A stretch of DNA of 64,000 nucleotides from a virus. Every line of letters starts with the position of its first letter. Position 1 is the stretch's first letter. The stretch lies in the IMG/VR virus record IMGVR_UViG_3300044213_000170, positions 1 through 64,000 of that record. The stretch is one strand, 5' to 3'. Positions 8,727 to 56,956 of the stretch are shown here, one piece after another. The notes beneath the pieces are model-generated. The model saw only the letters and a program-made list of their open reading frames with translations, made no database searches and was not told the DNA's origin. The position numbers and the translations under genes are program-made.

Positions 8727-10799
8727 TTATTTAGATTGTGCTCTGAAAACACCATCCCAATTGTCAGGCAAGCCGGCTTGACGCATTTCCTCTATACGTT
8801 CTAACCATAGACTATAATAGTTGTCCAATTGCCCATCAAACTCCCCGATTAAATCGTTAACTTGCTGCACTGCAAGGTCCCAATCTTGTCTTCGGTAGGA
8901 TGCTAACATTTCTTCATGGCCCTCTCGTGCCAATAACCATTCAGTTACTGAATTCCCCGAAGATGGCATATTTAGAACAGTATATATAGTTACCCCTTCT
9001 GTTTTTCCTTTTACTGCAATACAATCTAATTCAATGGTAAAAAATTCATCGCCGACTCGTTCTGCGGTAACTGGACCTAATACTATAAGAACTCCGTAAT
9101 TTTTACTTTGCCCTTCGAGCCTACTAGCCAAGTTAACAGCATCTCCAAGGCAGGTATAATCAAACCTCTGCTCACTACCCATGTTGCCAACCACGACAAC
9201 GCCAGTATTAATACCAATGCCCATCCCGAAAGGCGGAGTGCCTTCAGCGGAAATTTCTTTATTAAATTCATCCAAGCTCCCTATCATTTCTAATGCCGAT
9301 TTTACTGCCTCTTTGCAATGTACAGTATTATCCAATGGACTATTCCAGAATGCCATTTGAGCATCCCCGATATACTTATCTAACGTACCATTATTTTCTA
9401 ATATCTTTTTGGTCATTGCTGTCATATAGCGGTTCATAATCTTTGTCAGCCCTTGCACATCTTTCCCGTAGTGTTCACTGATACCGGTGAATCCTCGAAC
9501 ATCACTAAAGAGTATTGTCAATTCTTTTTCCTCGCCACCTAACCTTAATAGACTGGGATCCTTGACTAACTTAGCTACCAAGTCAGGACTTAAGTATGTG
9601 GAAAATTGCTTTCTGATCTGTTGTTTTTGTAAAAATTCCGACACAAATTTTACTATATAGGCGTGCAATGCTACTAATAGTAATCCTACTGCAACAAATG
9701 TGCTATCTAATAATATTAGATAATGACTGTATGCATATATGCTGCCGATTATTACACCCGATATGATAATCAATGATGCAAATATTCCTACATATACCCA
9801 TCTCATTAAACATATTAAAACGATTCCCGCCAATGCCAAAATATAAATCTCAATTTGATCTGCATCACCAGGTCTGGAAATGGCACGACCATTTAATAGC
9901 GTGCCCAAGAGACTGGCTTGTAAATATTGCGGCCATACTTCGCCTTTGGCTGTTGCAATAGGTTGAACTAATCCTGCCGCACTGAGTCCTACTACAACAA
10001 TTTCTTTATTGAATGTTGTTGGTAAGTTCATCAACGAAAACTCTGTGGGTGTTGAACTCCAGTCTATCCAAACTCTACTTATTGGGTCTATAGGTATCTT
10101 ATTTAATTTAGGAATACGAATTGCATCGATTCCAGCGCCAGTCACTTTTACTTGAATTCGAGAATCGCCCACACCTACACGTAATGTTTCCAATGCCAAT
10201 GAAGGATGTATATTTTCCCCTGTTTGAATAATCATTGGTATGCGACGAACAACACCATCAATTTCTGGGAATGTGTTAACAATACCGACACCAGCGGCCC
10301 TGTCACTTATTTCATTAACTGATGAAATTAATCCGGGATAGTTAACTAATGATTCTTCTATACCTGTTCCGATAACTTGCACAGGACTACCTGCATCTAT
10401 ATTTTTACTTTTCATACTACCTAGCGCAGGTAACACTACTGGGTATTTTTCTAAAGTTTTTTCTAATATGCTGTCTTTGTTGAATCTATCTTTTTCCGGC
10501 ATCAATACATTGAACACTACTAAACCCGCATCTCTTTTATATAAGTCTTGTATGATCTGTGCATATATGTCTCTGGGGAACGGAAACTGACCGTACTTGT
10601 CCAATGATGCTTCATCGATATTGACTGTATTTACTGGTACTCGACTGGTGGGTTGATTGATAATTAATTGATCGAAATATCTTAATCTGACAGATTCTAT
10701 AAAACTCGGATCCCATGCTCGCATAGCTAGTAAGATAGCTAGTGTAACTAATGCACCCCAGGGGTTTAGTAATATTTTTTTAATTGAAAGTTTTTTCAT
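8727..10799 (-). CDS. CHASE2-domain class III adenylate/guanylate cyclase
   Basis: The 690-residue membrane receptor has an N-terminal membrane segment (about 15-28), a periplasmic CHASE2 sensor (about 30-310), three transmembrane helices (about 316-386) and a class III cyclase domain (about 425-610). Metal-binding Asp are present in FSDVRGFT (D433) and YIGDA (D479); LGDAVNLASR gives the base-contacting Asp, Asn and transition-state Arg; VKGK supplies the substrate Lys. It therefore looks catalytically intact and probably makes cAMP from ATP. It is last in the curli-like operon behind FecR and secreted proteins. In bacteria CHASE2 cyclases are often near FecR proteins. Confidence 0.93.
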   Translation of the reverse strand: MKKLSIKKILLNPWGALVTLAILLAMRAWDPSFIESVRLRYFDQLIINQPTSRVPVNTVNIDEASLDKYGQFPFPRDIYAQIIQDLYKRDAGLVVFNVLMPEKDRFNKDSILEKTLEKYPVVLPALGSMKSKNIDAGSPVQVIGTGIEESLVNYPGLISSVNEISDRAAGVGIVNTFPEIDGVVRRIPMIIQTGENIHPSLALETLRVGVGDSRIQVKVTGAGIDAIRIPKLNKIPIDPISRVWIDWSSTPTEFSLMNLPTTFNKEIVVVGLSAAGLVQPIATAKGEVWPQYLQASLLGTLLNGRAISRPGDADQIEIYILALAGIVLICLMRWVYVGIFASLIIISGVIIGSIYAYSHYLILLDSTFVAVGLLLVALHAYIVKFVSEFLQKQQIRKQFSTYLSPDLVAKLVKDPSLLRLGGEEKELTILFSDVRGFTGISEHYGKDVQGLTKIMNRYMTAMTKKILENNGTLDKYIGDAQMAFWNSPLDNTVHCKEAVKSALEMIGSLDEFNKEISAEGTPPFGMGIGINTGVVVVGNMGSEQRFDYTCLGDAVNLASRLEGQSKNYGVLIVLGPVTAERVGDEFFTIELDCIAVKGKTEGVTIYTVLNMPSSGNSVTEWLLAREGHEEMLASYRRQDWDLAVQQVNDLIGEFDGQLDNYYSLWLERIEEMRQAGLPDNWDGVFRAQSK

Positions 10800-10817
10800 T
10801 TTAAATTATTGACGATA

Positions 10818-11144
10818 TCAGAAAGAAGAAACCTTCTTTCCTAAATTAAATCTAGTAGAGTCACTACCCGACCCAATTAAACAAGCGACTTCGTCGTTCA
10901 TTTGAATAATAGTCCAGGTTTTAGTTTTACTATTGACCATGAGCACGAAGCTGCTGTTGGTCTCAGCATCTTTACCGCCCCACGCAGGGACTTCTTCATA
11001 ATCCTCGCCTAATAAGAATTCTACAATGACCGATGTTTCGCCACAATAAATCTTCTTAGTAGCGGCAAATATTTCTGCTGCACTTGCTGTACTGTAAATC
11101 GCCAAAAGTAATGCTAATCCGCTTAATAATTTTGAAAACTTCAT
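10818..11144 (-). CDS. Small secreted protein of the curli/cyclase operon
   Basis: The 108-residue protein has a clear Sec signal peptide (FSKLLSGLALLLAIYSTASA) and a short mature domain with two Cys (KIYCGET and EVACLIG) that could form a disulfide, plus a WTIIQ strand. The ATG at 11144 is preferred over 11150 because AAGGA lies about nine bases upstream. It lies between the PA14-curlin gene and the cyclase and may be a periplasmic ligand or accessory for either. No function is known to me. Confidence 0.7.
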   Translation of the reverse strand: MKFSKLLSGLALLLAIYSTASAAEIFAATKKIYCGETSVIVEFLLGEDYEEVPAWGGKDAETNSSFVLMVNSKTKTWTIIQMNDEVACLIGSGSDSTRFNLGKKVSSF

Positions 11145-11172
11145 GATCATCGATCCTTAAAATAGTATTTAC

Positions 11173-12582
11173 TCATTTATTTCTAATGATAGATAATCCA
11201 CACCCTGCAGGATTTGTACAGGTCTGTGACAAACTATATGAATCTCCGATACCCGTCTGTACAAGATTGACAGAATTTGTTCCACCGGCATTGACTAAAT
11301 TTAATACTGCACTATGGCTATTACCAGTTTGACTTATACTGGCATTATTGCTGTCACCATATAAATTAATAGATGCTAAATTGGAATTCCCATTTTGGAT
11401 TATAGTAGAAGTATTATTATTCCCGTTAATTAATCCGTAAGACTGATTATTATTTCCGGTTTGATTTACCGTTGATGTATTTGTATTTCCCGAGATATTA
11501 ATAATCGAACTATTAGATAAGCCTATTTGTGTGTTTGTGATGTTGTTATAATTTCCAGTTACGGTAGCACCTAGAATATTGAAATTACTGGGCGTCAATG
11601 ACTCTGCCGGAATACCAATGGTGTTGTAAGTATATCCTTGCCCACTATTTAATTTATTAGATGATCCATTTAATGTAATGTCTTGATAATTGCCATGGCC
11701 GCTTTGATCCAAAGTAAGATTATTTTCACTGCTCGCTGTTACTTGTTTAATATATACGCCATTATAATTATTTCCTGTATAAGGACTAACAGGTATAGTG
11801 TTGGGACCATTAACTGCATAAGACCATGTGGTAGTGCTAGCAGTAGTACTGGGGCCCGTTGTATTAGTAGTTGTATTATCGCTATATGTTGTGGTCGTTA
11901 TTTGTGTCGTTGTGGTCGTGGTTGTTATGGGAGTTGCAGTCCCCACTACCGTATATGTGGTGTTATTCCAACCAGAATTGTTAGTAGTTGTTATAGTCGA
12001 CCCCACTTGTGAATCGGTAGTGGTTGTATTATATGTAGATGTTCCTGTTACCGTTGGCGCCCAATAATCTGCAGAAGTGGCCAACATACTGCTAGGTATA
12101 ATTTCCCAATTATTGGTAGACGGATTAAACCAATATAACATGGCCACGGCCTCGCCGCCGTTTTCATAATACCAAAAATCCACCGGCACAACTTGGCCGC
12201 TGGTTAATGGAGTAGTTCCTGACCAAAATGTTGGGGCCTGCTCTCGCCAAGCATTTACAACTATAGAATTATTAATTTTTAATATAGAACCATCATCGGT
12301 TGATGTTCCGAAATAATATGTACCGGCCGACGCAGCTTTGAAGTATCCCGTAAAGTGAACAATTACTTGATCCACTCTTCCGCTATCCATAACCACTCCC
12401 GATCCCCAATTAAAATTCACAGTAGATACAATACCAGTAGTTAACGGAGTAGGATATGTTAAGGGATTGATACTAGGTGTTGCACCGGTCCCTATATATG
12501 TGGTATAATTTAATCCGGCGGATCCTGACGCCCAGCTGGCACTTGTTATAGAAAACAACAAAAATAGTAAAAATTTTTTCAT
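11173..12582 (-). CDS. Secreted PA14-domain protein with C-terminal curlin-type repeats
   Basis: The 469-residue protein has a signal peptide ending ASWASG. A PA14/GLEYA-like domain follows (about 20-165: TGYFKAASAGTYYFGTSTDDGSILKINN, then WYYENGGEAVAMLYW in strand order). A very Thr-rich linker (about 175-260) leads to Asn/Gln/Gly-rich repeats such as NTSTVNQTGNNNQ and NNASISQTGNSHS. These match the CsgA/curlin pattern in which Gln and Asn stack in a beta-solenoid amyloid. The stop is preceded by a Cys pair. It overlaps FecR by ATGA. It is probably a fibre-tip adhesin or minor subunit exported through CsgG. Confidence 0.85.
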   Translation of the reverse strand: MKKFLLFLLFSITSASWASGSAGLNYTTYIGTGATPSINPLTYPTPLTTGIVSTVNFNWGSGVVMDSGRVDQVIVHFTGYFKAASAGTYYFGTSTDDGSILKINNSIVVNAWREQAPTFWSGTTPLTSGQVVPVDFWYYENGGEAVAMLYWFNPSTNNWEIIPSSMLATSADYWAPTVTGTSTYNTTTTDSQVGSTITTTNNSGWNNTTYTVVGTATPITTTTTTTQITTTTYSDNTTTNTTGPSTTASTTTWSYAVNGPNTIPVSPYTGNNYNGVYIKQVTASSENNLTLDQSGHGNYQDITLNGSSNKLNSGQGYTYNTIGIPAESLTPSNFNILGATVTGNYNNITNTQIGLSNSSIINISGNTNTSTVNQTGNNNQSYGLINGNNNTSTIIQNGNSNLASINLYGDSNNASISQTGNSHSAVLNLVNAGGTNSVNLVQTGIGDSYSLSQTCTNPAGCGLSIIRNK

Positions 12583-13697
12583 TTATAACTTTGACTGATT
12601 ATTATAGAACCTTGCGGTTTTCCATAAACCCCACTAAAATTCATAGCATCGGTGATTCTGTCCTGAGTTACTACAACTAATACCTTCGTATCATTTGCCA
12701 AGGAAACGGCAGCAAAATTATTGCCGTTAGGACTTAGTCCCATCCACGCCCACCCAAGTTGATTTAAATTCGGGTTATCATTTTTATAGATGCGTACTAT
12801 GTGTTCGTCTACATTAACGCTGGATTTAACTGCTACTCCAGTATCTGTTAATTTTGTCAGTAGTGCCAATGCCGAGCTTTGATCTTCTTGTTCTTTCGCT
12901 GCTTGCTTTTGATTTGCTTGTTGTTGATCTTGAACGGTCTGAACCTCAGCTTCAGATAGTGTATTATCTTTTTTAATGTCGCCTGTTTTTTGTGCAGCAG
13001 ATTTAGCGGCCTGTGTAATTAACACCCCGGTGATTGTATTGGGCGGAGTAATTAACAAATTATTGCCTATCGGTGTGTTACTTAGATTTACTATAACCGG
13101 AGGCAATGGCGGAGTGGCTGCTGTTTCAACTATAGTTGCCTGATAAGGTTTATCTAATCTTATGTTCGTTGATCCGCTATTAACATCTATTTTACCACTG
13201 CCGCAACTAGTACCTTTTAAGTTTACTGTTTGTGGTAATTCGCAAGCAGGCATTAAAAGTACCATACTTTTACCAGTTTCGTCTACTGCCATAACAAAAT
13301 CAGTACCACGGACAGTGATTGTGGCAGTCGGTGTGTTAATTTTTACACTATTGGGATTATTATGTGCAATATTACCGGACACATATCGTACTGTACCGCT
13401 AGCGGCTTTAAGACTAAGTTTACCGCCTTGAGAATTTTTTGGATCGTAAACAAAATCATCAATGACGAGACTGGAATTTTCCGTTACCTTAACGGTAGTA
13501 TTATCTTTAAACCTAATATTTACTATACCGTTTTTAGTTTCGACTTTATCGTCGGTCTCTATTAGAGAGCCTTGAGTCACTATAATAGTTTGTTTCCCGC
13601 GTTTAATTACTGCACTACCCGAGAGTTCGACTACCGAACCTATGTCGGCATAAGCTACAGTGGCCAATAGCCAAAGCAACAAGAGCCAGTTTTTCAC
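12579..13697 (-). CDS. Secreted FecR-domain protein
   Basis: The 372-residue protein starts at a GTG (13697) with Shine-Dalgarno AAGGAG and has a signal peptide (LLLLWLLATVAYA). A FecR domain follows: VVELSGSAVIKRG, LIETDDKVETKNG, VNIRFKDNTTVKVTENS and TPTATITVRGTDF. The C-terminal half is a Gln/Lys/Ala-rich helical stretch (about 230-285) and a small beta domain. FecR domains are periplasmic sensors or scaffolds. No sigma factor is nearby, but a CHASE2 cyclase is, a pairing also seen in bacteria. It likely links fibre secretion to the cyclase. Confidence 0.88.
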   Translation of the reverse strand: MKNWLLLLWLLATVAYADIGSVVELSGSAVIKRGKQTIIVTQGSLIETDDKVETKNGIVNIRFKDNTTVKVTENSSLVIDDFVYDPKNSQGGKLSLKAASGTVRYVSGNIAHNNPNSVKINTPTATITVRGTDFVMAVDETGKSMVLLMPACELPQTVNLKGTSCGSGKIDVNSGSTNIRLDKPYQATIVETAATPPLPPVIVNLSNTPIGNNLLITPPNTITGVLITQAAKSAAQKTGDIKKDNTLSEAEVQTVQDQQQANQKQAAKEQEDQSSALALLTKLTDTGVAVKSSVNVDEHIVRIYKNDNPNLNQLGWAWMGLSPNGNNFAAVSLANDTKVLVVVTQDRITDAMNFSGVYGKPQGSIIISQSYK

Positions 13698-13706
13698 AAG
13701 AACTCC

Positions 13707-14510
13707 TTAGTGACTCTTCTGAATAATATTAAAGCTACCACCCGCAGCAACTGCCTGCACATTAGCGACATTACTGTATGTACCTGTTTGACTAACATTA
13801 AACGTAGTACTACCTGCGCCGGTTTGCGATAACACCAAACTGCTCAAACTTGCACTAGTTTGTGTCAAGTTAATAGTATTGTTATCGCTACTAGTCAAAT
13901 TAATCAATGCTTGTTGACCAGCAGTACTATTTTGTTGGATAGTAACAGTGTTACCACTACCTGTGGTATAAACAGCGGCTTGCAATGCAGGACCATTACC
14001 TGTATAGTTTAATCCGTTATTATTTCCAGTAAATCTAGCATCTAATGCCGCATTATTCGTATACGTAGAAGTTGCAGAACAACTAGTTGTTAATCCACAA
14101 CTTACGTTAGCAGTATTGCTATTGCCCAATTGTTGAAGATACACATTAGCTGCATTACCAGTGATCTTCATGGTATTAATGACGTTGTTATTTCCAGTTT
14201 GATCAATTGTAACAACCTGATTATTCCCATTCAGCACCATGCTGTTAATAGCGCCGCTGGAATCACTTCCTGCTCGGTTACTATTACCATCTTGATTGAT
14301 ACTTATAGTAGGTGAATTACCTGTTTGTTGCAAATAGATAATATTGGTTGTGCTAGCATTTAAACTGGCAGTTACACCGGCTGCAAAACGAGTTGTTGAC
14401 TCGGTTGTAATGGCAGGTGCGGATGCTTGAGTAGGTGCGGTAGGTGCTGTCTGTGCAAACACCGCGCCAAATATTGTACTAACCGCTAACGATAATAATT
14501 TTTTTATCAT
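13707..14510 (-). CDS. Curlin-repeat (CsgA/CsgB-like) secreted protein
   Basis: The 267-residue protein has a signal peptide ending VFAQ and a Thr/Ala/Pro-rich N-terminal segment. At least six imperfect curlin repeats follow in the pattern x-I/V-x-Q-x-G-x-x-N (for example TISINQDGNSNRA, VVTIDQTGNNNVI, NVYLQQLGNSNTA, FNVSQTGTYSN). This is the amyloid-forming beta-solenoid pattern of E. coli CsgA and CsgB. A Cys pair (CGLTTSC) interrupts the repeats. It has a good ribosome-binding site and sits directly after CsgG, as expected for the export substrate. It is longer than CsgA (about 150 residues). Confidence 0.87.
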   Translation of the reverse strand: MIKKLLSLAVSTIFGAVFAQTAPTAPTQASAPAITTESTTRFAAGVTASLNASTTNIIYLQQTGNSPTISINQDGNSNRAGSDSSGAINSMVLNGNNQVVTIDQTGNNNVINTMKITGNAANVYLQQLGNSNTANVSCGLTTSCSATSTYTNNAALDARFTGNNNGLNYTGNGPALQAAVYTTGSGNTVTIQQNSTAGQQALINLTSSDNNTINLTQTSASLSSLVLSQTGAGSTTFNVSQTGTYSNVANVQAVAAGGSFNIIQKSH

Positions 14511-14529
14511 GATATTTCCTTATAAGGTT

Positions 14530-15342
14530 TTACTCCCTCTCTTTTTCTTCCTTGAATTTCCATAGGCCTATGCTTTCGCCCTTCTTGATAAGCTCGACAA
14601 TTCCCTGTTCGATTGCTGATCGTAAAGCATAGTTTCCTGGTTCATTGAAAGTTTGACTGATGTCAAATTCGAATGTTTTGGTATTTTGATTATAAAATTT
14701 TAATCCGGTCATACCGTCCTGGGTACTTAACAAATTTTTCTCAATTGTGATACTTGTTAATACTTCTCCAGTCTGAACACTAACTAACCGTAAACTGATT
14801 ACCACTTGATCCTGCGTATACTGAGTGTAAGGGCCGATTCCCAATGTAGCGAATCCTGATCCCCCAGTCAGTACATTAGTATTGTAATCAATGATGCCGC
14901 CTTCTAAAATAACGCCTGCTAGTGTTAATGGCGGTAACATTTTGGCTTTTTCACCTTCATAGATTTCACGTGTTTGTTTAATCATTTGACGTTCTTTTAA
15001 CAAATTCTCTAAATTCACACGTTCTACTACCGTGAACCATTGACGATTTCCGGCTTCTTGAAGGCTTCTGATTAGGTAACTTTCGGCACCTTGAGTGACT
15101 GCGGTGCTGAATAAACTTAATGTTTGACTATTTTTGCGTTGGCCGGTCAAATCTTTAAATCCGTATACTGCTATGGCAATTTTAGGACCATCTGGTGCAG
15201 GCAAAGAATCGATTTCTTTTATAATTGTAACTGATTCTTTAGGCTGATCTTTGATGCTTAATTCGGTGAATGGTCGAATAGTGCTACAACCAATTATGGA
15301 ATTTAGTATTAGAGATGGTATAATTACTTTGATTAAGTTCAT
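14530..15342 (-). CDS. csgG: CsgG-like outer-membrane curli secretion lipoprotein
   Basis: The 270-residue protein has a lipoprotein signal with lipobox IIGC (Cys19). CsgG landmarks follow in order: LPAPDGPKIAIAVYGFKDLTGQ, FSTAVTQGAESYLI, WFTVVERVNLENLLKERQ, GVILEGGIIDYNTN, GFATLGIGPYTQY, ISLRLVSVQTGEVL and a C-terminal GLWKFK helix. CsgG forms a nine-fold outer-membrane channel exporting curlin subunits. Of the E. coli constriction residues, Phe56 (before STAV) is kept, whereas the Asn55 and Tyr51 positions appear to be Leu and Gln. It lies 10 bp from csgF, with the substrate gene next. Confidence 0.95.
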   Translation of the reverse strand: MNLIKVIIPSLILNSIIGCSTIRPFTELSIKDQPKESVTIIKEIDSLPAPDGPKIAIAVYGFKDLTGQRKNSQTLSLFSTAVTQGAESYLIRSLQEAGNRQWFTVVERVNLENLLKERQMIKQTREIYEGEKAKMLPPLTLAGVILEGGIIDYNTNVLTGGSGFATLGIGPYTQYTQDQVVISLRLVSVQTGEVLTSITIEKNLLSTQDGMTGLKFYNQNTKTFEFDISQTFNEPGNYALRSAIEQGIVELIKKGESIGLWKFKEEKERE

Positions 15343-15352
15343 TTATATCTCC

Positions 15353-15841
15353 TCAAAAACTAAAACTCGATATTGGTACAGTAATGGTCTGTGTTGGGCT
15401 AGCGTTTGGAATAAATGTTCCAGCAGAATTCTTTGTGCCATCGTATACAGTTAATGTAACAGACCCGTTGGACTTAACCCATTGTATTTGTTGGGCATCG
15501 CTGACCATAAAATTACCGCTAGTACAACTTGCGCCACCGCTGGATACACAGTCTTTAAATAAATTGTTTGTTAGTTGTGTGGCCAGCTGACTGTATACTT
15601 GACCTGTAAACAGGGCCATAAATTTAGCCAGCGGAGTATTTGCTGCTGCAGACTGGGCTGCAGCAGCATCTGCTGCGGCTTTTGAGTCAACCTGAGCCTT
15701 GGCTGTTTGACGCATTTGCTCCAAAGTCAACACTTGACTAGACCAACCGTTGCCGCTGAACGTTGGATCTTTAAACTGTTGTACTAAATCGGCATTTGAT
15801 ATTATTGGTGCAAATAATAACCCCACCAAGATCTTTCTCAT
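15353..15841 (-). CDS. csgF: CsgF-like curli assembly factor
   Basis: The protein has 162 residues from the ATG at 15841, which has GGAG six bases upstream and gives a proper signal peptide (MRKILVGLLFAPIISNA); in-frame starts upstream are unlikely. The mature N-terminus LVQQFKDPTFSGNGW matches the CsgF pattern F-[RK]-[ND]-P-x-F-x-G that inserts into the CsgG channel, and the end TITVPISSFSF matches the CsgF C-terminus. An Ala-rich helix and a Cys pair lie between. CsgF caps CsgG and couples secretion to nucleation. It is the first gene of the operon; a weak late-promoter-like CTAAATATT lies just upstream. Confidence 0.85.
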   Translation of the reverse strand: MRKILVGLLFAPIISNADLVQQFKDPTFSGNGWSSQVLTLEQMRQTAKAQVDSKAAADAAAAQSAAANTPLAKFMALFTGQVYSQLATQLTNNLFKDCVSSGGASCTSGNFMVSDAQQIQWVKSNGSVTLTVYDGTKNSAGTFIPNASPTQTITVPISSFSF

Positions 15842-15889
15842 ACTAAACTCCATAGTCACTTAAATATTTAGTGAAACTGTGATTTTTTA

Positions 15890-33254: not shown

Positions 33255-33944
33255 TTATTGATGTTTATGGAATCTAGATAATCCCATATTATTAGTTTCT
33301 TTTTGACACACTACGCAAGATACTCTGGTTCGGGCAGGATTATTATTTATAAAGTAACATTCGCCATTTTCAATCTGTTCTTTCATCCATTCTGAGTGCT
33401 TAATACCATGTTGCTTCTTCCACTCAGGATCAATGAAATGATGCGTACCTGCCTTAACTCTATCAGATGCCACACTGGTGCCGTCAGGGCGTTTTAGTAA
33501 ATTATGTTTTCCCTCCGCAACTAACCTTTTAGTTACCTTACCACCTAAGTTTGCTTTTGGAGGATCATTGACAAAATTGTGCGTCCCATTATCTATTCTT
33601 TTCTGTGCATTTTCTTTTCCAGCATCTCTCAGTTTTTCAATGGCAGATTCAGTGTGTTTATATCCAGAATTATTGCCTCTACCACCATTGGTAGAATTTC
33701 TCAGTATCCCCGTACCCAAATCTTTTCGTCCATATTGTTCAATTAGTTCCGATTCATAATCGTATGCTTCTTCTTCATACAAACAATCTCTTAGAATGAC
33801 TATTTTACTTTTATCTTTCGGCAAAAGATTAGTTCCATTCGTTCCCGTATGTGATTTCCATGCTCTATCGTTACTGCCCTTACCAATGTAATAAGGTGTT
33901 AGGTCTTCTCGTAGATATGCGTAAACATAAAATATATTTTCCAT
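33255..33944 (-). CDS. GIY-YIG homing endonuclease
   Basis: The 229-residue protein opens with YVYAYLREDLTPYYIGKGSNDRAW (GIY-YIG with catalytic Tyr and Arg) and has a Glu-bearing YESELIEQYG. It ends with NUMOD-like repeated helix modules and a Cys pair (CVVCQKE) suggesting a zinc finger. It sits between nrdA-C and nrdB, a classical homing site in T4 phages. A strong ribosome-binding site (AGGAG) and its own late-like promoter are present. Confidence 0.9.
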   Translation of the reverse strand: MENIFYVYAYLREDLTPYYIGKGSNDRAWKSHTGTNGTNLLPKDKSKIVILRDCLYEEEAYDYESELIEQYGRKDLGTGILRNSTNGGRGNNSGYKHTESAIEKLRDAGKENAQKRIDNGTHNFVNDPPKANLGGKVTKRLVAEGKHNLLKRPDGTSVASDRVKAGTHHFIDPEWKKQHGIKHSEWMKEQIENGECYFINNNPARTRVSCVVCQKETNNMGLSRFHKHQ

Positions 33945-34003: not shown

Positions 34004-35017
34004 TCAAAGTTTGCATGCCTCACAATCTTCCATGTCGTCAAAATCAATGACTTCTGGTGGTGCTTCAATATCATCTTGTACTTTGGCTCCCTGCTTATTA
34101 ATAAGTGAGTAATAAAAAGTTTTGGTTCCGTAATAATGTGCCATCATCAAGTTTTTAGCAACCAATGTCGTTGGAACTTTTCTGTCAGGAAAATGTGCCG
34201 GATTGTAGAAAGTATTTACAGATATTGCCTGATCAACATATGCTTGTAATACAGCCGATGTTTTTAGATACCCGACACAATCTGTTTGATCCCACATCAA
34301 TTGATATTTGTTTTTCAATTTGTGATATTCTGGAACAACTTGTGTAAATGATCCTGCTTTGCTTTCTTTAACTGTAATTAAACTCATTGGCATTTCTATG
34401 CCGTTAGTGCTATTAATAACGACACTACTAGATTCTACAGGAGCAATCGCCATTTGTGTAGCATTACGGACACCATATTCTTTCATCTGAATTCTCAGTG
34501 ATTCCCAATCCAATTCCGGTGCAAAGTTTGCTAGTTCATTTACACCTGCGGCACGTACTTCCCACGGGAATGTACCTTGTCCATATCTAGTTTTGTCACT
34601 GTCTAAACATTTACCACGCTCTTTTGCTAACTCAACCGATGCCTCTGTTAAATAGTAGGCTTGATGTTCCATCCAAGTTTTTACATCTTGCAACGCATCT
34701 TTATCACCATACTTATAATCTCGCTTGGCGTGCCAATACGCTAAGTTAGTGACACCAATACCTAGCGGACGGATTTCGTCATTGCTTAATTTACTTTGGA
34801 TACTTAGAAAATCTTGATAGTCCAAAATATTATTGAGACTGCGGTGAAGAATACGACAGGCACGACGCATATCTTCCGGGTTACGGAAGGCACCCCAATT
34901 GATAGAGCCGAGTGTGCAAAGAGCCACTCTGCCCTCCGCTTCATCAATCTCAAAATATTCGTATTCATCATCTAACTCTTCGGGTAGATATTCTATTTCT
35001 TCATATAGTTCGTTCAT
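34004..35017 (-). CDS. nrdA-C: Ribonucleotide reductase NrdA, C-terminal piece
   Basis: The 337-residue protein corresponds to the C-terminal 45 percent of class Ia NrdA. It contains VALCTLGSINWGAF (second active-site Cys, E. coli C462), GIGVTNLAYW, PVESSSVVINSTNGIEMP, ISVNTFYNP and the tail CEACKL that takes electrons from glutaredoxin. It begins with an added or extended acidic segment rich in Glu, Asp and Tyr. It must pair with the N-terminal piece at 35025-36494 to be active. Confidence 0.93.
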   Translation of the reverse strand: MNELYEEIEYLPEELDDEYEYFEIDEAEGRVALCTLGSINWGAFRNPEDMRRACRILHRSLNNILDYQDFLSIQSKLSNDEIRPLGIGVTNLAYWHAKRDYKYGDKDALQDVKTWMEHQAYYLTEASVELAKERGKCLDSDKTRYGQGTFPWEVRAAGVNELANFAPELDWESLRIQMKEYGVRNATQMAIAPVESSSVVINSTNGIEMPMSLITVKESKAGSFTQVVPEYHKLKNKYQLMWDQTDCVGYLKTSAVLQAYVDQAISVNTFYNPAHFPDRKVPTTLVAKNLMMAHYYGTKTFYYSLINKQGAKVQDDIEAPPEVIDFDDMEDCEACKL

Positions 35018-35024
35018 TATTCAT

Positions 35025-36494
35025 CTACCTTATCTTCCTGATGTTAACAATGTCATTTGATTTTGTTTTCATAAACTCGTCTACATTGGACTTTTTAACT
35101 CTAATCAACTTTCGTTCAGAATTCATTCGCTTGAAACTCTTGGTGGGCAAAAGGATTTCGCAACATAAATTCGACTGATAAATCTTATGATATTCAGGAT
35201 CAAACGGACCTTGATTCATTACATTGTCTATGAACACAAGATAGATACGTCCGGTGTCTGTACGTTCTTTTAAAATGCCGCCTTTGAATACTTCTTCTGC
35301 TGACATAACTTTTTTACGCAAGCCCGATTGTTTTTCATATTTTGTATATAATTGTTCAAACAACTGAGTATCTCTGTAAAATGCTTCGTACAAGTCAGGT
35401 ACTTCGTTGGGATCAAAGAAAGTAATATTTTCTTTATTTTTAAAGCGGCGCCAAAAGAAGGCACTTAATACAACGCCATAGTCCATATGACGTACACGTG
35501 TTTCTTCCGTACCTTGATTATTCTTTAGAACGATAAGATCATCAAATTGATGATGCCAAATTGGATAAAATACTGTGGCGCTGGCATTACGTATACCACC
35601 CTGACTACAACTTCGTAGATCGCCGAACCATTTCTTTAAGAATGGTATCATACCTGTATGCATAATTTCCCCGCCACGAATAGGACTACCAAGCGGACGT
35701 AAGCGACCAATCTCTAATCCTATGCCAGCACGTTTGCTGGCATACTTGGCCATCATTTCGCCCGAAGCAAAGATACTATCAAGATCGTCGTCACTGCGAA
35801 TGAGAACACAACTGCTAAACTGTTTAGTTGGAGTTCCAAGGCCAGCAAGCACAGGAGTAGCGAGAGTGAAAAGACCATCGGACGCCGCATGGTAATACTC
35901 TTTAATGTATCGCATCCTTGCTGTGTTAGGTTCTTCTTTGTGAAATACTGTTGCAGCCGCGACCATATATCTAATTTGGGGAGTTTCATATGTTTCCTTA
36001 GTAGCACGATTTCTAACTAGATATTTTTCAATTAACTGTTCAATCGCAGCATAGCTATATTGTTCGTCCTTCTCATGGTCCAACATGGCGTTCATTTTAT
36101 CCCAGTCTTCTTTTGTATACCACTCAAGAAGTTCAGGAGTATATAATCCTACGCTTACATTTTTTTTAACAATCTCATATATGTGTGGTACTTCGTAGTC
36201 GCCGTAGACATCTTTGCGTAACATACTAAGACGTTGTTTACCGGCCACATATTGATAATTTGTATGTCCTACTTCGGGGTTATTTTCTACGTCGATTAAA
36301 TCGACTATAGCTCGCAGTGTTATTTCATCTATTTCTCGTGTAGTGATATTATCATAAAATTGAGGATGACTTTTAATTTCGATCATACTCTGACTTACAT
36401 CTGCTACACCTCTACAAACTTTTTGAACTTGTGCTTGCCACTTTTCAACCGACAATGGTTCTTTATTGCCTGAACGTTTTACTACTTGAATCAT
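35025..36494 (-). CDS. nrdA-N: Ribonucleotide reductase NrdA, N-terminal piece
   Basis: The 489-residue protein begins with an ATP-cone (VVKRSGNKEPLSVEKWQAQV) and holds SSCVLIRSDDDLDSI (E. coli C225), GIGLEIGRLR and QSNLCCEILLPTK (thiyl-radical Cys C439 and Glu). It then ends with a non-homologous basic tail rich in Lys and Arg and stops with TAG, seven bases before the C-terminal piece. All N-side catalytic residues are present. Confidence 0.93.
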   Translation of the reverse strand: MIQVVKRSGNKEPLSVEKWQAQVQKVCRGVADVSQSMIEIKSHPQFYDNITTREIDEITLRAIVDLIDVENNPEVGHTNYQYVAGKQRLSMLRKDVYGDYEVPHIYEIVKKNVSVGLYTPELLEWYTKEDWDKMNAMLDHEKDEQYSYAAIEQLIEKYLVRNRATKETYETPQIRYMVAAATVFHKEEPNTARMRYIKEYYHAASDGLFTLATPVLAGLGTPTKQFSSCVLIRSDDDLDSIFASGEMMAKYASKRAGIGLEIGRLRPLGSPIRGGEIMHTGMIPFLKKWFGDLRSCSQGGIRNASATVFYPIWHHQFDDLIVLKNNQGTEETRVRHMDYGVVLSAFFWRRFKNKENITFFDPNEVPDLYEAFYRDTQLFEQLYTKYEKQSGLRKKVMSAEEVFKGGILKERTDTGRIYLVFIDNVMNQGPFDPEYHKIYQSNLCCEILLPTKSFKRMNSERKLIRVKKSNVDEFMKTKSNDIVNIRKIR

Positions 36495-46824: not shown

Positions 46825-48939
46825 TTATAAAATTACCGCTTCGATTAGTTTTTCGCCGGTATCTTCGCTAGATTCGAGTGCGATTCCAAAAGACATAAAG
46901 CTCAATGCAGATCCCGCAATTGCGACCCCGGCGGTTTCTGAAGCAATTAAACTATCGCCTTTGTTGACTGGTCCTACTACTCTGACTGGTACACGACCTT
47001 TTAACGCCACAGCCTGACCGTCGGCTTTTTCATTCATTAAAAATGCCGGAGCTTCACTGATTACCCCGATTGGTCTGCTGCCAACTAAACTGGCCGTTAC
47101 TTCTGCGGAACCACCGACAGATACTACCGTGCCAGTAGTATAGTTAACATCAGTCAAGTATTTTTCTGCAATGTCGGCATATAGAGCATTAACTGCGGTT
47201 ACAGTTAACGTATTAGTACTTGGATTATAGTAGAATCCGCTGTTGGTGTATGCCGTTGAATTAGCTCCCTGGGTGTTCACAAACACTGGATAATAGTTCG
47301 CATTTGTTGTTTGGTTTGCCGCATTAATAGTAGTGCTTGGCCCTGTTGGTCCTTGTGGACCTTGTGGACCTGTTGACCCAGTTGGACCTTGTGGACCTTG
47401 TGGACCTTGTGGACCTGTACCCGATCCTGCAGGTCCTGCCGGGCCTGTTGGTCCTTGCGGGCCCTGTGGGCCACCTGCCGGACCTTGTGGACCTTGCGGG
47501 CCTGTTGCACCTTGTGCACCTGTTGGACCTTGAGGACCTTGCGGACCTGTACTACCAGTTGCACCTTGCGGACCTTGCGGGCCAATCGAGCCACCGCCCG
47601 AAGTAACTGCTGCATATCCGGATACTGCACTACTAAAAGTCAATACCGCTTGTGTGTTACTGACAAAGGAAACAGATGGATAATCATATCTACCCACATA
47701 TGATACACCAGTGTTATCAATTGGTTCAATATTAACATACTGAACGCCTAAATTATGGTTGATAGTCCAAGTTGTACTTGGGGTAGTTTGTGTGTGTATG
47801 TATCCGCCACCCGAATCGCCCTTAGGACCTTGTGGACCTTGTGGACCTGTCGACCCAGCTGGGCCTTGTGGCCCTTGTGGACCAGGTGAGCCCGAGCCCG
47901 ATCCTTCCGGGCCTGCCGGGCCTGTTGGTCCTTGCGGGCCCTGTGGGCCACCTGCCGGACCTTGTGGGCCTTGTGGGCCTGTTGCACCTATTGTCCCAGC
48001 TGTACCTGCTGGACCTTGTGGACCTTGCGGACCTGTCGACCCTGCTGGACCTTGTGGGCCAGCTGGTCCGCCACCCGAGGTAACAGCTGCCCACCCCGAA
48101 ACAGCACTATCAAATGTCAATACCGCTTGTGTATTACTAGCAAAGGAAACAGATGGATAATCATATCTACCCACATATGATACACCAGTGTTATCAATTG
48201 GTTCGATATTGACGTATTGTATACCTAAGTTGTGGTTAATAGTCCAAGTTGTACTAGCAGAACTTTGAGTATGGATGTATCCGCCAGTTGCCCCCGAATC
48301 GCCTTTAGGCCCTTGTGGACCTTGTGGACCTGTACCGCCCGGCGAACCCGGTAATCCTGCTGCACCGTTAGTACCAGCCGGGCCTTGTGGTCCTTGCGGA
48401 CCTGTTGCCCCAGTTGCCCCAGGTAATCCTTGTATTCCGATTGGTCCTTGTGGACCTGTTAAACCTACCGGACCTTGTGGTCCTTGTGGACCTTGTGGTC
48501 CTACTGTGCCGACTGCGCCGGCTAAACCTATCTGCCAATTATTATACGTTCCACTGCCAAGTACGCCAGATACGCTAACAATCAATTGACCATTTGCTGT
48601 AGTATAACTAGTAATATTACCAGTCATCAAATCTGAACCATCATAAGCAATAATTACTTCTTGCCCAATGGAGTATGCTAACCCTGCTTCAACAGTTAAA
48701 GTATGTGTTCCTGTGCCAATAGTTAAATTAGTGGAAGATATAGTTGTATATTTGTCGCCAAATACCCCGTCAGCTCCTTGGGGTCCTTGGGGTCCTTGGG
48801 GCCCTTGTGGGCCACTCGACCCGAGTGTTGAAGTTACATTTGCAAAATTTTTGTTTATTTTATTAAATGCATCTCGTAAATTATCTCCAGTCCCGTCGTT
48901 GGGACTGGTGCCGATATTAATATTTCCAAATGAACTCAT
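46825..48939 (-). CDS. Collagen-like tail fibre protein
   Basis: The 704-residue protein has an attachment module [28 protein letters not shown] (typical of T4-like fibres) and several blocks of GPQGPQGP collagen triplets (Gly-Xaa-Yaa). Two nearly identical roughly 75-residue beta modules ([20 protein letters not shown]...) lie between them, and the C-terminal domain includes [24 protein letters not shown]. It should form a trimeric triple-helical fibre for host recognition. A late-type AATAAATA element precedes it. Confidence 0.93.
47333..48589. repeat. Collagen-repeat DNA (9-bp GGACCTTGT-like units)
   Basis: Several blocks of degenerate 9-bp units encoding Gly-Pro-Gln, plus the duplicated module at about 47585-47815 and 48065-48290. 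These give long open frames on all strands that are shadows of the fibre gene. The repeats favour recombination and length variation of the fibre. Confidence 0.85.
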
Positions 48940-54173: not shown

Positions 54174-55016
54174 TCAAGATTGCCAGTCTATTTTTTCCAG
54201 ACTGAATGGGTAGTTGGCTTCTTTGTAGAATGATTTTCGTTTAGTAAGATGTCGTTTGGCAAATTTACAGGTGCTTGTGATGTCCCAAATTTCAACGTGG
54301 TCCTTGTCTTGAGCTTTCCTAATACCTCGGCCAATAGATTGTATAACCCTAACAAAGCTCTTTCCGGGTTCCACAAGAACCAAATTAAAGATCCGAGGAA
54401 TATTAATCCCCACAGCGGCCACACCATAAGTCGCCACAATAACTTTCCCATCTGCGGTAGCCACCTCATCATATTCTTCCTTTCGATCCTTGGCCTTTGT
54501 TGCGCCACTAACAAATACAGCATCTTTGATTCTGCTGGTCAATTCCTTGCCCGGGCCCACTCTATCTACTAGAACTAATGTGTTACCTGACTCCGCTATC
54601 TTACTGATCATATTGCTCATATAATCAATTCGTTCTTGTGTTTCTAACAAATATCGTAGCTCTTGCTGATAGTCTTTGTATTCTACATAGTCTACCATCT
54701 GTACTATATTTACATGACAATTACTCAAGTGGCCTGCTTCTTGAAGTTCGTTGGCGCTGAGTTTTCCTACCACTGGCCCGATGCAACAAAATAATGCTTG
54801 AGCTGCATATTCTTCTTTTGGTATGGTCCCCGTTAGCCCCCAACGGATCGGTGTATTGGCAAATACGCTGGTTAACAAAGTTTTTAATGCATCTGCTTTA
54901 GCACTATGGCAATTAGATACAACTGCGCCATTAACAATATAGTTGTGATCATTTTGAATATGTAGGTTATACACCAATTCAGGTTTTGTGATTTCTGTTT
55001 TCTTTATTAATTTCAT
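54174..55016 (-). CDS. uvsW-C: Split intein C-fragment fused to C-terminal half of UvsW helicase
   Basis: Residues 1-35 are an intein C-domain (KKTEITKPELVYNLHIQNDHNYIVNGAVVSN) with block F His and terminal Asn. The +1 residue is Cys of CHSAKAD, which completes the DECH box of a superfamily-2 helicase. The 245-residue extein continues with WGLTGTIPKE (motif III), TLVLVDRVGPG (IV), VATYGVAAVGINIP (V) and VIQSIGRGIRK (VI). Trans-splicing with the product of 55940-56956 would give a 486-residue UvsW (T4 UvsW about 503). Confidence 0.93.
   Translation of the reverse strand: MKLIKKTEITKPELVYNLHIQNDHNYIVNGAVVSNCHSAKADALKTLLTSVFANTPIRWGLTGTIPKEEYAAQALFCCIGPVVGKLSANELQEAGHLSNCHVNIVQMVDYVEYKDYQQELRYLLETQERIDYMSNMISKIAESGNTLVLVDRVGPGKELTSRIKDAVFVSGATKAKDRKEEYDEVATADGKVIVATYGVAAVGINIPRIFNLVLVEPGKSFVRVIQSIGRGIRKAQDKDHVEIWDITSTCKFAKRHLTKRKSFYKEANYPFSLEKIDWQS
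54884..54902. repeat. 19-bp extein repeat, copy in the C-extein
   Basis: TTAATGCATCTGCTTTAGC encodes, on the minus strand, the first residues (SAKADAL) of the UvsW C-extein. The same 19 bases recur at 55912-55930. Confidence 0.85.
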
Positions 55017-55912
55017 AATGTTATTAATTTCTTAATTTTTTCCTGTGTGTTAACATCAAACACAGTATAATCAATATTGCCAATTTTCTTAGCAGTTAAA
55101 CAAATCCATTCTTTGTTTACTAGGATTACATTATAACAGCTATTTTCGGCCCATTGCAACAATGCAGTATATTTTGCCATAAATTTTTGTTCGGAACATA
55201 ATTCTATCGGTTTTACTTCGATGCAAGTTTTGGTTATGTGATTTACAAAATCAACTATATAAACACGTTCTTTACTGTTATACTGATATGGTATTCTCAG
55301 AGTTTCATATAATGCATCTTTATCAAAATACTGATACAATGCCTCCCAGCTTGATCGGTAACGCTTACCATTATACTGTGCATCCCAATGAGTATTTCTA
55401 TTATTAGAGTTCGGAGTAAACTTACCTGATAAAATTAGTGATTTCATTAATTTAGAATGTGCCTCTTTTTGATCAGCTGACATTCGTTTGCCGTACATAC
55501 CGTTGTTTTTACCTTTGTTCTTTTCACTAATTTTTAATTTAGATTCTTCTGTATGCGGTGTACCCAGAAATCCTGTTTTCCCTTTGTTCCAAGGAATACC
55601 TGTATTTAAATTGTTTATTATTTTATTTTTATGAATATGCCAACAAGAATTACCACCCAATTTGGCTAATTCTGTCTTGATTTCTTTTTCTGTTTGTGCA
55701 CCGTCAAGTAAGTTATCAACGTTTTTAACCCATATATCCGTTTTTTTGTTTAGCAGGCGCCTTTTAAACTTCTGCAAATCTTTACCACTTATTAATATAC
55801 CGTTTGATAACTCAACTGTTTTATTTTTATAATCCACAATTCTGGTAATTTGACCATAATGTGTTAACAAGTTATTAATATCTACAATCCAACTATTATT
55901 TGTTTTTTTCAT
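55013..55912 (-). CDS. Free-standing homing endonuclease inside the split intein
   Basis: The 299-residue protein has an N-terminal WIVDINNLL/VKNVDNLLDG repeat and NUMOD3-like DNA-binding motifs (GFLGTPHTEESKLKISEKNKGKNNGMYG). A nuclease domain follows with RSSWEALYQYFD, YIVDFVNHITKTCIEVKP (Asp...Glu-x-Lys) resembling the EDxHD/PD-(D/E)XK-type endonucleases of fractured split-intein genes. It overlaps the downstream uvsW-C start by four bases. It should spread the intein by cutting intact uvsW. Confidence 0.85.
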   Translation of the reverse strand: MKKTNNSWIVDINNLLTHYGQITRIVDYKNKTVELSNGILISGKDLQKFKRRLLNKKTDIWVKNVDNLLDGAQTEKEIKTELAKLGGNSCWHIHKNKIINNLNTGIPWNKGKTGFLGTPHTEESKLKISEKNKGKNNGMYGKRMSADQKEAHSKLMKSLILSGKFTPNSNNRNTHWDAQYNGKRYRSSWEALYQYFDKDALYETLRIPYQYNSKERVYIVDFVNHITKTCIEVKPIELCSEQKFMAKYTALLQWAENSCYNVILVNKEWICLTAKKIGNIDYTVFDVNTQEKIKKLITL

Positions 55913-55930
55913 TAATGCATCTGCTTTAGC
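55912..55930. repeat. 19-bp extein repeat, footprint copy upstream of the endonuclease
   Basis: Exact copy of 54884-54902, lying between the intein N-fragment stop and the endonuclease start. On the minus strand it still spells HSAKADAL before the ATG, a remnant of the uninterrupted UvsW target. Adjacent Ser codons differ (TCA here, AGT in the extein), so it is not a recent copy. Confidence 0.85.
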
Positions 55931-55939
55931 TGAATGTAC

Positions 55940-56956
55940 TTATGTTTTATTTATTATTTCGTGATTTTCGGTCAACTCATCGGCCCTGCACCAACCCAAG
56001 TTAGTCAAAAATTTATGGTTACCAGTTACTTCTATTATAGTCCCATTATCAAATTCTAACTTATACATTTTTTCTGACTCAGAATTTGTTAAATTTATGT
56101 GCTGTTTTACCACCGTGTCTGTTTTAAATTCTTTTGCGGTCTCAGAATAATTAATGATTACATCACCAACAGCAACATCTTTTATGGGCTTATATCCGTC
56201 CACTGTTAATACTAACGAATCGCCGGAAAAGCATTCATCGACCATAACACAAACCACATTTTCTACGAATTCACCGATAGTCATATCGGCTTCGTAATTT
56301 TTTGTATTTTTAAGTAAAGCATTGAGGCTTTGCCAAGTGCATATTGTATGTGTACGGTTATACTCTTTCCTGTCGCCGAATAATACCCCAACATCCAGCC
56401 CCATATTAATATAATCGGCTTCGGTCTGTGTCACAAGACTTTTGCTGGGCACAATAACTATGCTACGACCATATTTTTGCACACTTGCAGACAATGCCGC
56501 TGTCATAATAGTTTTACCCGCACCTGTAGCCACTTCCTGTATGCATTGAGGATTTTCTAAAAATTTATTTACAATTTCAACTTGATAATCTCTCATTAAT
56601 ATCGGTTGACCTTCTGCCGGATGTCCTTTTGGCCATTTGATATCTTGGAATGTTGTTTCTGTAACAGGGTCAAATTCAAATGTAGTGCTGTATTGCCGTA
56701 AATCATTTACTTCTATATCGTAACCCCGTTCGTCCAAAAACGGCAAAATTTCGGGCAACAAGTTAATATATGTAGTGCCTCCTAGATTAAAATAAGGAAC
56801 TTTGCCGTCCCAACGACCAAGACGTACTGCTGGCAAGTACCTTGCTCCAGGAATCTCATATTTAAACTTATCAACTAATCGTTTCCGATCAGTTAATTCT
56901 ACGTTATGAAGTTTACAATTAACTTCATCTTTAATTTCAATTATACAGGTTGTCAT
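55940..56956 (-). CDS. uvsW-N: N-terminal half of UvsW helicase fused to split intein N-fragment
   Basis: The first 241 residues are UvsW: an N-terminal domain, the Q-like MRDYQVEIVNKF, Walker A ATGAGKTI, motif Ia IVIVPSKSLVTQ and CVMVDE (first half of DECH). The remaining 97 residues (55943-56233) are an intein N-domain beginning CFSGDSLVLTVDGYKPI (Cys1, block A) with block B VTGNHKFLTNLGW. It needs the C-fragment at 54174-55016 for splicing. UvsW remodels branched DNA and drives recombination-dependent replication. Confidence 0.95.
   Translation of the reverse strand: MTTCIIEIKDEVNCKLHNVELTDRKRLVDKFKYEIPGARYLPAVRLGRWDGKVPYFNLGGTTYINLLPEILPFLDERGYDIEVNDLRQYSTTFEFDPVTETTFQDIKWPKGHPAEGQPILMRDYQVEIVNKFLENPQCIQEVATGAGKTIMTAALSASVQKYGRSIVIVPSKSLVTQTEADYINMGLDVGVLFGDRKEYNRTHTICTWQSLNALLKNTKNYEADMTIGEFVENVVCVMVDECFSGDSLVLTVDGYKPIKDVAVGDVIINYSETAKEFKTDTVVKQHINLTNSESEKMYKLEFDNGTIIEVTGNHKFLTNLGWCRADELTENHEIINKT

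What the first reader, a model, noticed from the sequence alone, without database searches (positions are those of the whole stretch)
54174..56956. Split intein in the DECH box of UvsW with a free-standing endonuclease
uvsW is broken exactly between DE and CH of the catalytic motif. The upstream ORF ends with a 97-residue intein N-fragment (Cys1, block B His), and the downstream ORF begins with a 35-residue C-fragment ending in Asn before Cys+1. An EDxHD-like homing endonuclease gene lies between. This is the fractured-gene layout described from marine metagenomes for genes such as gp41, applied here to UvsW.
Basis: partly seen in the sequence, partly recalled or inferred. Interest (0 to 1): 0.9.

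Follow-up and report, generated by a model that had tools for sequence, protein, structure and literature searches.

The report
Phage helicase gene split by intein
A virus of bacteria makes its UvsW DNA-repair helicase as two proteins that an intein cut in two should stitch together, with a DNA-cutting 'homing' gene lodged between them; the layout is a known kind, but the stretch just before that gene unexpectedly copies the gene's own target site, which suggests that the cutter regulates itself.

Summary
It is a 'fractured gene'. The same site and layout occur, unrecognised, in cultured phages S16 and PM2 and in about 55-60 distinct environmental virus loci; 31 other virus contigs hold the empty site. 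Splicing residues are kept in 60 of 62 loci. Several groups lost the nuclease but kept both intein halves, and one fused them in frame: comparative evidence that splicing is needed. The nuclease is not EDxHD but PD-(D/E)xK, TnsA-like, with NUMOD3. New here: the ~30 nt before the nuclease start codon copy its presumed target (19 nt exact in the window; 63% mean identity in 30 loci, 43% at the next best of 1,200 offsets) and are far more conserved than saturated codon positions. An unrelated EDxHD nuclease at the Walker A site of relatives does the same. This resembles the self-repression operator of T4's I-TevI. Splicing, cleavage and repression are untested.

The parts
56234..56956 (-). UvsW N-extein (241 aa), ends ...VMVDE
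55943..56233 (-). intein N-fragment (97 aa), Cys1, block B TGNH; stop codon 55942-55940
55913..55936 (-). leader that copies the C-extein start (CATTCAGCTAAAGCAGATGCATTA; 21 of 24 nt identical), directly before the nuclease ATG; proposed operator / homing-site mimic
55013..55912 (-). free-standing homing endonuclease, 299 aa, NUMOD3 plus TnsA-like PD-(D/E)xK domain
54912..55016 (-). intein C-fragment (35 aa), ends ...VVSN
54174..54911 (-). UvsW C-extein (245 aa, starts CHSAKADAL) and stop codon
54884..54902 (-). homing-site half in the C-extein that is repeated exactly at 55912-55930

Best explanation
A fractured uvsW gene. The two ORFs are translated separately; the intein halves associate, fold into one HINT domain and trans-splice, joining ...VMVDE to CHSAKA... 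to restore the DECH motif and a 486-residue helicase (inferred). The gene between the halves encodes a TnsA-like PD-(D/E)xK homing endonuclease that cuts intein-less uvsW at DE|CHxAKA, so that repair copies the whole block into it (inferred). The leader before the nuclease ATG is a copy of that target site, kept by selection; most likely the nuclease binds it and represses its own expression, as I-TevI does in T4 (inferred; the least certain step, about 0.5). Shown here: the anatomy, conserved splicing residues, empty sites, repeated nuclease loss with retention of the split intein, one in-frame re-fusion, and the statistical copy of the target in the leader.
For: Anatomy and motifs. Same layout in phages S16 and PM2 and about 55-60 distinct IMG/VR loci, with C1, TxxH and DE before the intein in 60 of 62 and CH after it in 62 of 62. 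Empty sites in 31 contigs, several about 73% identical to the window's halves. Nuclease lost or fragmentary but intein kept in L018, L035, L051, L056, L057, L060, L064, L068; fused in frame in L021/L023-L026. Nuclease class. Leader: mean identity 0.628 at C-extein codon 2, next best offset 0.431, mean 0.272, sd 0.046 over 1,200 offsets, 0.622 without the window; 77% of leaders score >=15/27 against 0.4% of 229 other ORF leaders in the same loci; leader identity 0.77-0.82 between loci whose nucleases are 39-54% identical with third positions at 0.41-0.46; leader changes concentrate where the consensus departs from the site and favour the site's base. Second example: leaders of the unrelated EDxHD nuclease at Walker A score 14-17/22 in six of seven, controls mean 10.3. 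Precedent: I-TevI operator, 15/20 nt like its homing site, directly upstream of its ORF, repression shown (PMC2988022).
Against: No splicing, cleavage or binding data exist. The penultimate intein residue is Ser or Ala, not His, in most members; from general knowledge this is also so in the active Npu DnaE intein. Leader copies are absent in S16, PM2 and TG1, where the nuclease ORF starts inside the IntN ORF. Matching of each leader to its own site rather than to the family's site is weak (permutation p 0.019, 0.065; not corrected for kinship). A promoter that the nuclease could occlude is not established: TATAAATA is not enriched. The Walker A site is not the best match in two of seven leaders.
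Confidence: 0.85

Rival explanations
1. Genes in pieces without splicing: the two UvsW halves work as a non-covalent complex and the intein halves are degenerate tails, as in the split NrdA of phage Aeh1.
For: Phage enzymes with unspliced halves are known (PMC2988022), and this window's own nrdA is split without an intein.
Against: Splicing residues kept in 60 of 62 distinct loci; both intein halves survive loss of the nuclease and in L021 became a continuous intein; the break cuts the catalytic DECH motif itself; intein halves are better conserved than the exteins.
Confidence: 0.06
2. The target-like leader is a scar of the nuclease gene's entry: it carried along the uvsW sequence next to which it once sat (collaborative homing), and the copy survives only as a ribosome-binding site.
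For: The copy is in register with the codons of the C-extein and directly abuts the nuclease ATG; leaders contain Shine-Dalgarno-like AAAGGAG or AGAGGT.
Against: Conservation is strongest in the part farthest from the ribosome site (0.83-0.89 in the first 20 nt) although the neighbouring coding sequence is saturated; later changes still lean towards the site; an unrelated nuclease at another site shows the same.
Confidence: 0.25
3. The leader is simply a conserved promoter plus ribosome-binding site that resembles the extein by composition.
For: CATAAATA/TATAAATA looks like a T4 late promoter and a Shine-Dalgarno sequence follows.
Against: Other ORF leaders in the same loci do not match the site (0.4% against 77% at >=15/27); only the junction offset of 1,200 stands out; TATAAATA is not enriched in the genome.
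Confidence: 0.2

Closest known systems
Fractured genes with split inteins and free-standing nucleases (Dassa et al. 2009, Nucleic Acids Res 37:2560; known through citations in PMC10448857 and PMC7090010, the paper itself is not held)
   Same: Host gene cut into two ORFs by a split intein with a free-standing nuclease gene between.
   Different: Host gene uvsW, and the nuclease is TnsA-like PD-(D/E)xK rather than the EDxHD family. The EDxHD type does occur at the Walker A site of relatives (L066, L084, L097).
uvsW of Salmonella phage S16 (NC_020416) and Proteus phage PM2 (NC_055727)
   Same: Same insertion site DE|CH, same three-ORF layout, homologous intein halves (51-61% identical) and nuclease (32-36% identical; phrog_22417).
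   Different: Exteins only 26-29% identical; the nuclease ORF starts inside the IntN ORF and no target-like leader is found. Annotated only as helicase / hypothetical protein / helicase.
Phage T4 td intron I-TevI autorepressor operator (PMC2988022)
   Same: A homing-site-like sequence directly upstream of a mobile element's nuclease gene.
   Different: Split intein instead of group I intron; PD-(D/E)xK instead of GIY-YIG nuclease; promoter overlap and repression not shown here.
Split inteins NrdJ-1, gp41-1 and Npu DnaE
   Same: Canonical split position (97/35 here), Cys1, short IntC; the natural fused relative L021 matches Spl DnaX, Npu DnaE and NrdJ-1 structures by sequence.
   Different: Only distant sequence similarity; mostly Ser-Asn or Ala-Asn end; uvsW host. 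gp41-1 and IMPDH-1 were not compared directly.

Membership tests
Fractured gene with split intein | Host gene broken into two ORFs exactly at a conserved motif | tested here: met
   DE|CH, exteins 241 + 245 aa; site uninterrupted in 31 contigs
Fractured gene with split intein | IntN with Cys1 and block B TxxH; IntC ending Asn before Cys/Ser/Thr +1 | tested here: met
Fractured gene with split intein | Free-standing nuclease ORF between the halves | tested here: met
   55912-55013, homologues in most relatives
Fractured gene with split intein | Trans-splicing restores the host protein | not testable with these tools
   Only comparative support: retention after nuclease loss, in-frame re-fusion
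EDxHD homing endonucleases | Conserved E, D, H, D catalytic motif | tested here: not met
   Invariant E190, D221, E232 and near-invariant K234 instead; no invariant H-D pair in 29 sequences. I-Bth0305I is a distant fold match, Z 7.0
PD-(D/E)xK nucleases, TnsA-like | E ... D ... (D/E)xK active site on a restriction-endonuclease fold | tested here: met
   Motif invariant or nearly so; TnsA 1t0f and 1f1z best by Foldseek and VIA-align, Z 8.5
PD-(D/E)xK nucleases, TnsA-like | Pfam TnsA-like N domain above its cut-off | tested here: inconclusive
   Window protein 16 bits (cut-off 26.5); 22 of 29 relatives hit at E <= 0.1, best 2.8e-10
I-TevI-type autorepressor operator | Homing-site-like sequence directly upstream of the nuclease ORF | tested here: met
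I-TevI-type autorepressor operator | Operator overlaps the promoter of the nuclease gene | tested here: inconclusive
   Family leaders carry CATAAATA or TATAAATA, but TATAAATA is not enriched in the genome
I-TevI-type autorepressor operator | Nuclease binds without cutting and represses | not testable with these tools
   needs binding and reporter assays

The most novel reading that the evidence does not exclude
Free-standing nucleases inside split inteins carry a copy of their own homing site as an operator over their start signals and repress themselves; this arose independently in a TnsA-like nuclease (Walker B site) and an EDxHD nuclease (Walker A site) of uvsW, in parallel with the intron nucleases of phage T4. 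To my knowledge no intein-associated nuclease has been described with such control; a nuclease embedded in a continuous intein could not have its own.
Probability: 0.5. Interest if true: 0.75.

Novelty: new variant of a known kind. Interest (0 to 1): 0.6.

Why it matters
It shows what a free nuclease gene may gain from a split intein: its own start signals, and apparently its own control. The about 55-60 loci hold empty, occupied, nuclease-less and re-fused states of one element at one site, which makes the homing cycle of split inteins, and the reversal from split to continuous intein, directly testable. They also supply many new natural split-intein pairs with a Cys+1 and a 97/35 split.

Tried and rejected
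EDxHD assignment: rejected on motif. T4 late promoter as explanation of the conserved CATAAATA: TATAAATA not enriched in window or genome; not excluded. Target-like leader in S16, PM2 and the TerL case TG1: not found, so it is not a general feature of this nuclease family. A first control of leaders against the site (end) used a site shifted by three bases and was discarded; one search is the corrected one. Gapped local alignment of leaders to the empty site was less decisive (site best in 9 of 30). Sequence search of solved structures with the nuclease profile: no match. The alignments meant for an intein structure misplaced the fragments, so the intein was not modelled. No held paper joins 'split intein' with 'UvsW', or homing endonuclease, intein, autoregulation and operator. 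Dassa et al. 2009 is not held.

Full report
Check of the observation. On the minus strand the window holds three consecutive ORFs: 56956-55940 (338 aa), 55912-55013 (299 aa) and 55016-54174 (280 aa). The first is the N-terminal half of a UvsW helicase up to ...CVMVDE followed by a 97-aa intein N-fragment; the third is a 35-aa intein C-fragment ending ...VVSN followed by CHSAKADAL and the rest of UvsW. Profile searches agree: ResIII, UvsW_N, Hint and Intein_splicing on the first, Helicase_C and the intein C-terminal region on the third, and PHROGs 16259 and 9690, which are themselves the two halves of such split helicases. The record is a 145.4-kb IMG/VR virus; no other intein match was found in it.

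The arrangement is not unique. Salmonella phage S16 and Proteus phage PM2, both cultured, carry the same three ORFs at the same DE|CH site, annotated only as helicase, hypothetical protein, helicase. Between window and S16 the intein halves are 61% and 51% identical and the nucleases 32%, but the exteins only 27% and 26%, the pattern expected of an element that moved between distant uvsW genes. Scans of IMG/VR with the two alignments gave 64 and 74 loci, which reduce to about 55-60 distinct split uvsW loci. In 62 distinct loci Cys1, TxxH and the preceding DE are kept in 60 and the following CH in 62. A scan for the uninterrupted site gave 31 contigs with uvsW running through DE|CH, some about 73% identical to both halves of the window.

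Nuclease loss. L018, L035, L051, L056, L057, L060, L064 and L068 have lost the nuclease or keep fragments of it, yet both intein halves persist as two ORFs; in L021 and L023-L026 the deletion restored one frame, so that the intein is a continuous 139-aa mini-intein. That the halves survive without the nuclease is the best comparative evidence that they are needed, that is, that they splice. Splicing itself was not and could not be shown here. The fused L021 intein matches Spl DnaX, Npu DnaE and NrdJ-1 intein structures by sequence.

The nuclease. In 29 relatives E190, D221 and E232 are invariant and K234 nearly so...RSSWE...YIVDF...EVKP. Pfam's TnsA-like domain is hit by 22 of 29 (best 2.8e-10) and NUMOD3 by 17. 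The AlphaFold2 model (mean pLDDT 86, catalytic domain mostly above 90) is closest to TnsA (Z 8.5), then Vsr (7.6) and I-Bth0305I (7.0). It is thus a PD-(D/E)xK nuclease with a modular DNA-binding motif, not EDxHD, although EDxHD and Vsr share the wider fold.

The leader. The window repeats 19 nt of the C-extein start exactly at 55912-55930, directly before the nuclease ATG. In relatives this spacer is conserved with consensus CATAAATACATATAACTAAAGCAGAAGTATTTATG and resembles the start of the C-extein, CAYATGGCNAARGCNGAY..., codon for codon. Averaged over 30 distinct leaders the identity is 0.628 at C-extein codon 2 and at most 0.431 at any other of 1,200 uvsW offsets (mean 0.272, sd 0.046), and 0.622 without the window. 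Of these leaders 77% score 15 or more of 27, against 0.4% of 229 leaders of other ORFs in the same loci. Leaders stay 77-82% identical between loci whose nucleases are 39-54% identical and whose third codon positions are at 0.41-0.46, and the part farthest from the ribosome site is the most conserved. Changes in leaders fall preferentially where the consensus departs from the site (p 2.6e-5) and favour the site's base (32 of 57, p 3e-4); in the window five of six such positions changed and four became matches. These p-values ignore kinship. Whether each leader follows its own site rather than the family's is only weakly supported (p 0.02 to 0.065).

A second case. Some relatives (L064/L066, L084/L181, L182, L183, L097/L184, L188, L194) have another split intein in the same gene, at Walker A (ATGAGK|T), with an unrelated free-standing nuclease whose invariant E245, D258, H276 and D300 fit EDxHD (three sequences). 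Its leaders copy the N-extein side of that site: L183 reads ACTGCTACAGGAGCAGGAAA before the ATG where its own P-loop reads ATCGCTACAGGAGCAGGCAAA. Six of seven score 14-17 of 22 against a control mean of 10.3, and the site is the best match in the tested coding sequence in five of seven. S16, PM2 and the TerL case of Yersinia phage TG1, whose nuclease ORFs start inside the IntN ORF, show nothing of the kind.

Interpretation. The closest precedent is I-TevI of phage T4: a sequence 15/20 identical to its homing site lies directly upstream of its ORF, is bound by it, and represses transcription (PMC2988022). I therefore propose that the leader is an operator-like copy through which the nuclease limits its own synthesis. 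This step is inferred, at about 0.5. A scar of the nuclease's entry, kept as a ribosome-binding site, is the main alternative; chance similarity of purine-rich sequences is less likely given the controls. A promoter under the leader was not established.

Verdict. Observation confirmed; interpretation partly supported (wrong nuclease class; layout already present, unrecognised, in cultured phages). A new variant of the fractured-gene kind, with a conserved target-site copy before the nuclease gene as the new element.

Noticed in passing
L084/L181, L182, L097/L184, L194 (also L067): uvsW in three pieces: a split intein at Walker A (with an EDxHD nuclease where examined) and another at Walker B with the TnsA-like nuclease, so that two trans-splicing reactions would be needed to make one helicase. 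The Walker A intein has a very short N-fragment (about 30-40 aa).
   Followed up: partly
window 34004-36494 (-): nrdA is also in two ORFs: the first ends with a basic tail (NSERKLIRVKKSNVDEFMKTKSNDIVNIRKIR), the second starts with an acidic head (MNELYEEIEYLPEELDDEYEYFE); only a few nt between, no intein or nuclease. The opposite charges suggest docking.
   Followed up: partly
window 33255-33944 (-): ORF between nrdA and nrdB that reads like a GIY-YIG nuclease (YVYAYL...YYIGKG); no Pfam match at 0.001.
   Followed up: no
window 8727-15859 (-): Curli-type secretion genes in a virus record: CsgG (1.8e-47), CsgF (4.7e-9), a PA14 plus curlin-repeat protein, a further repeat-rich ORF, FecR, and a CHASE2-adenylate cyclase. 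Either unusual phage cargo or a chimeric contig.
   Followed up: partly
window 46825-48939 (-): 704-aa collagen-like (GPQ repeat) protein with a weak Peptidase_G2-like match near its end, possibly a virion fibre.
   Followed up: no
L022 4724-5980 and L123 3701-4696: IntN and nuclease fused in one ORF with IntC separate: an intermediate between split and continuous layouts.
   Followed up: no
L021 2212-4086: Continuous uvsW with a 139-aa mini-intein that apparently arose by in-frame deletion of the nuclease from a split form: a reversal from split to cis intein.
   Followed up: partly
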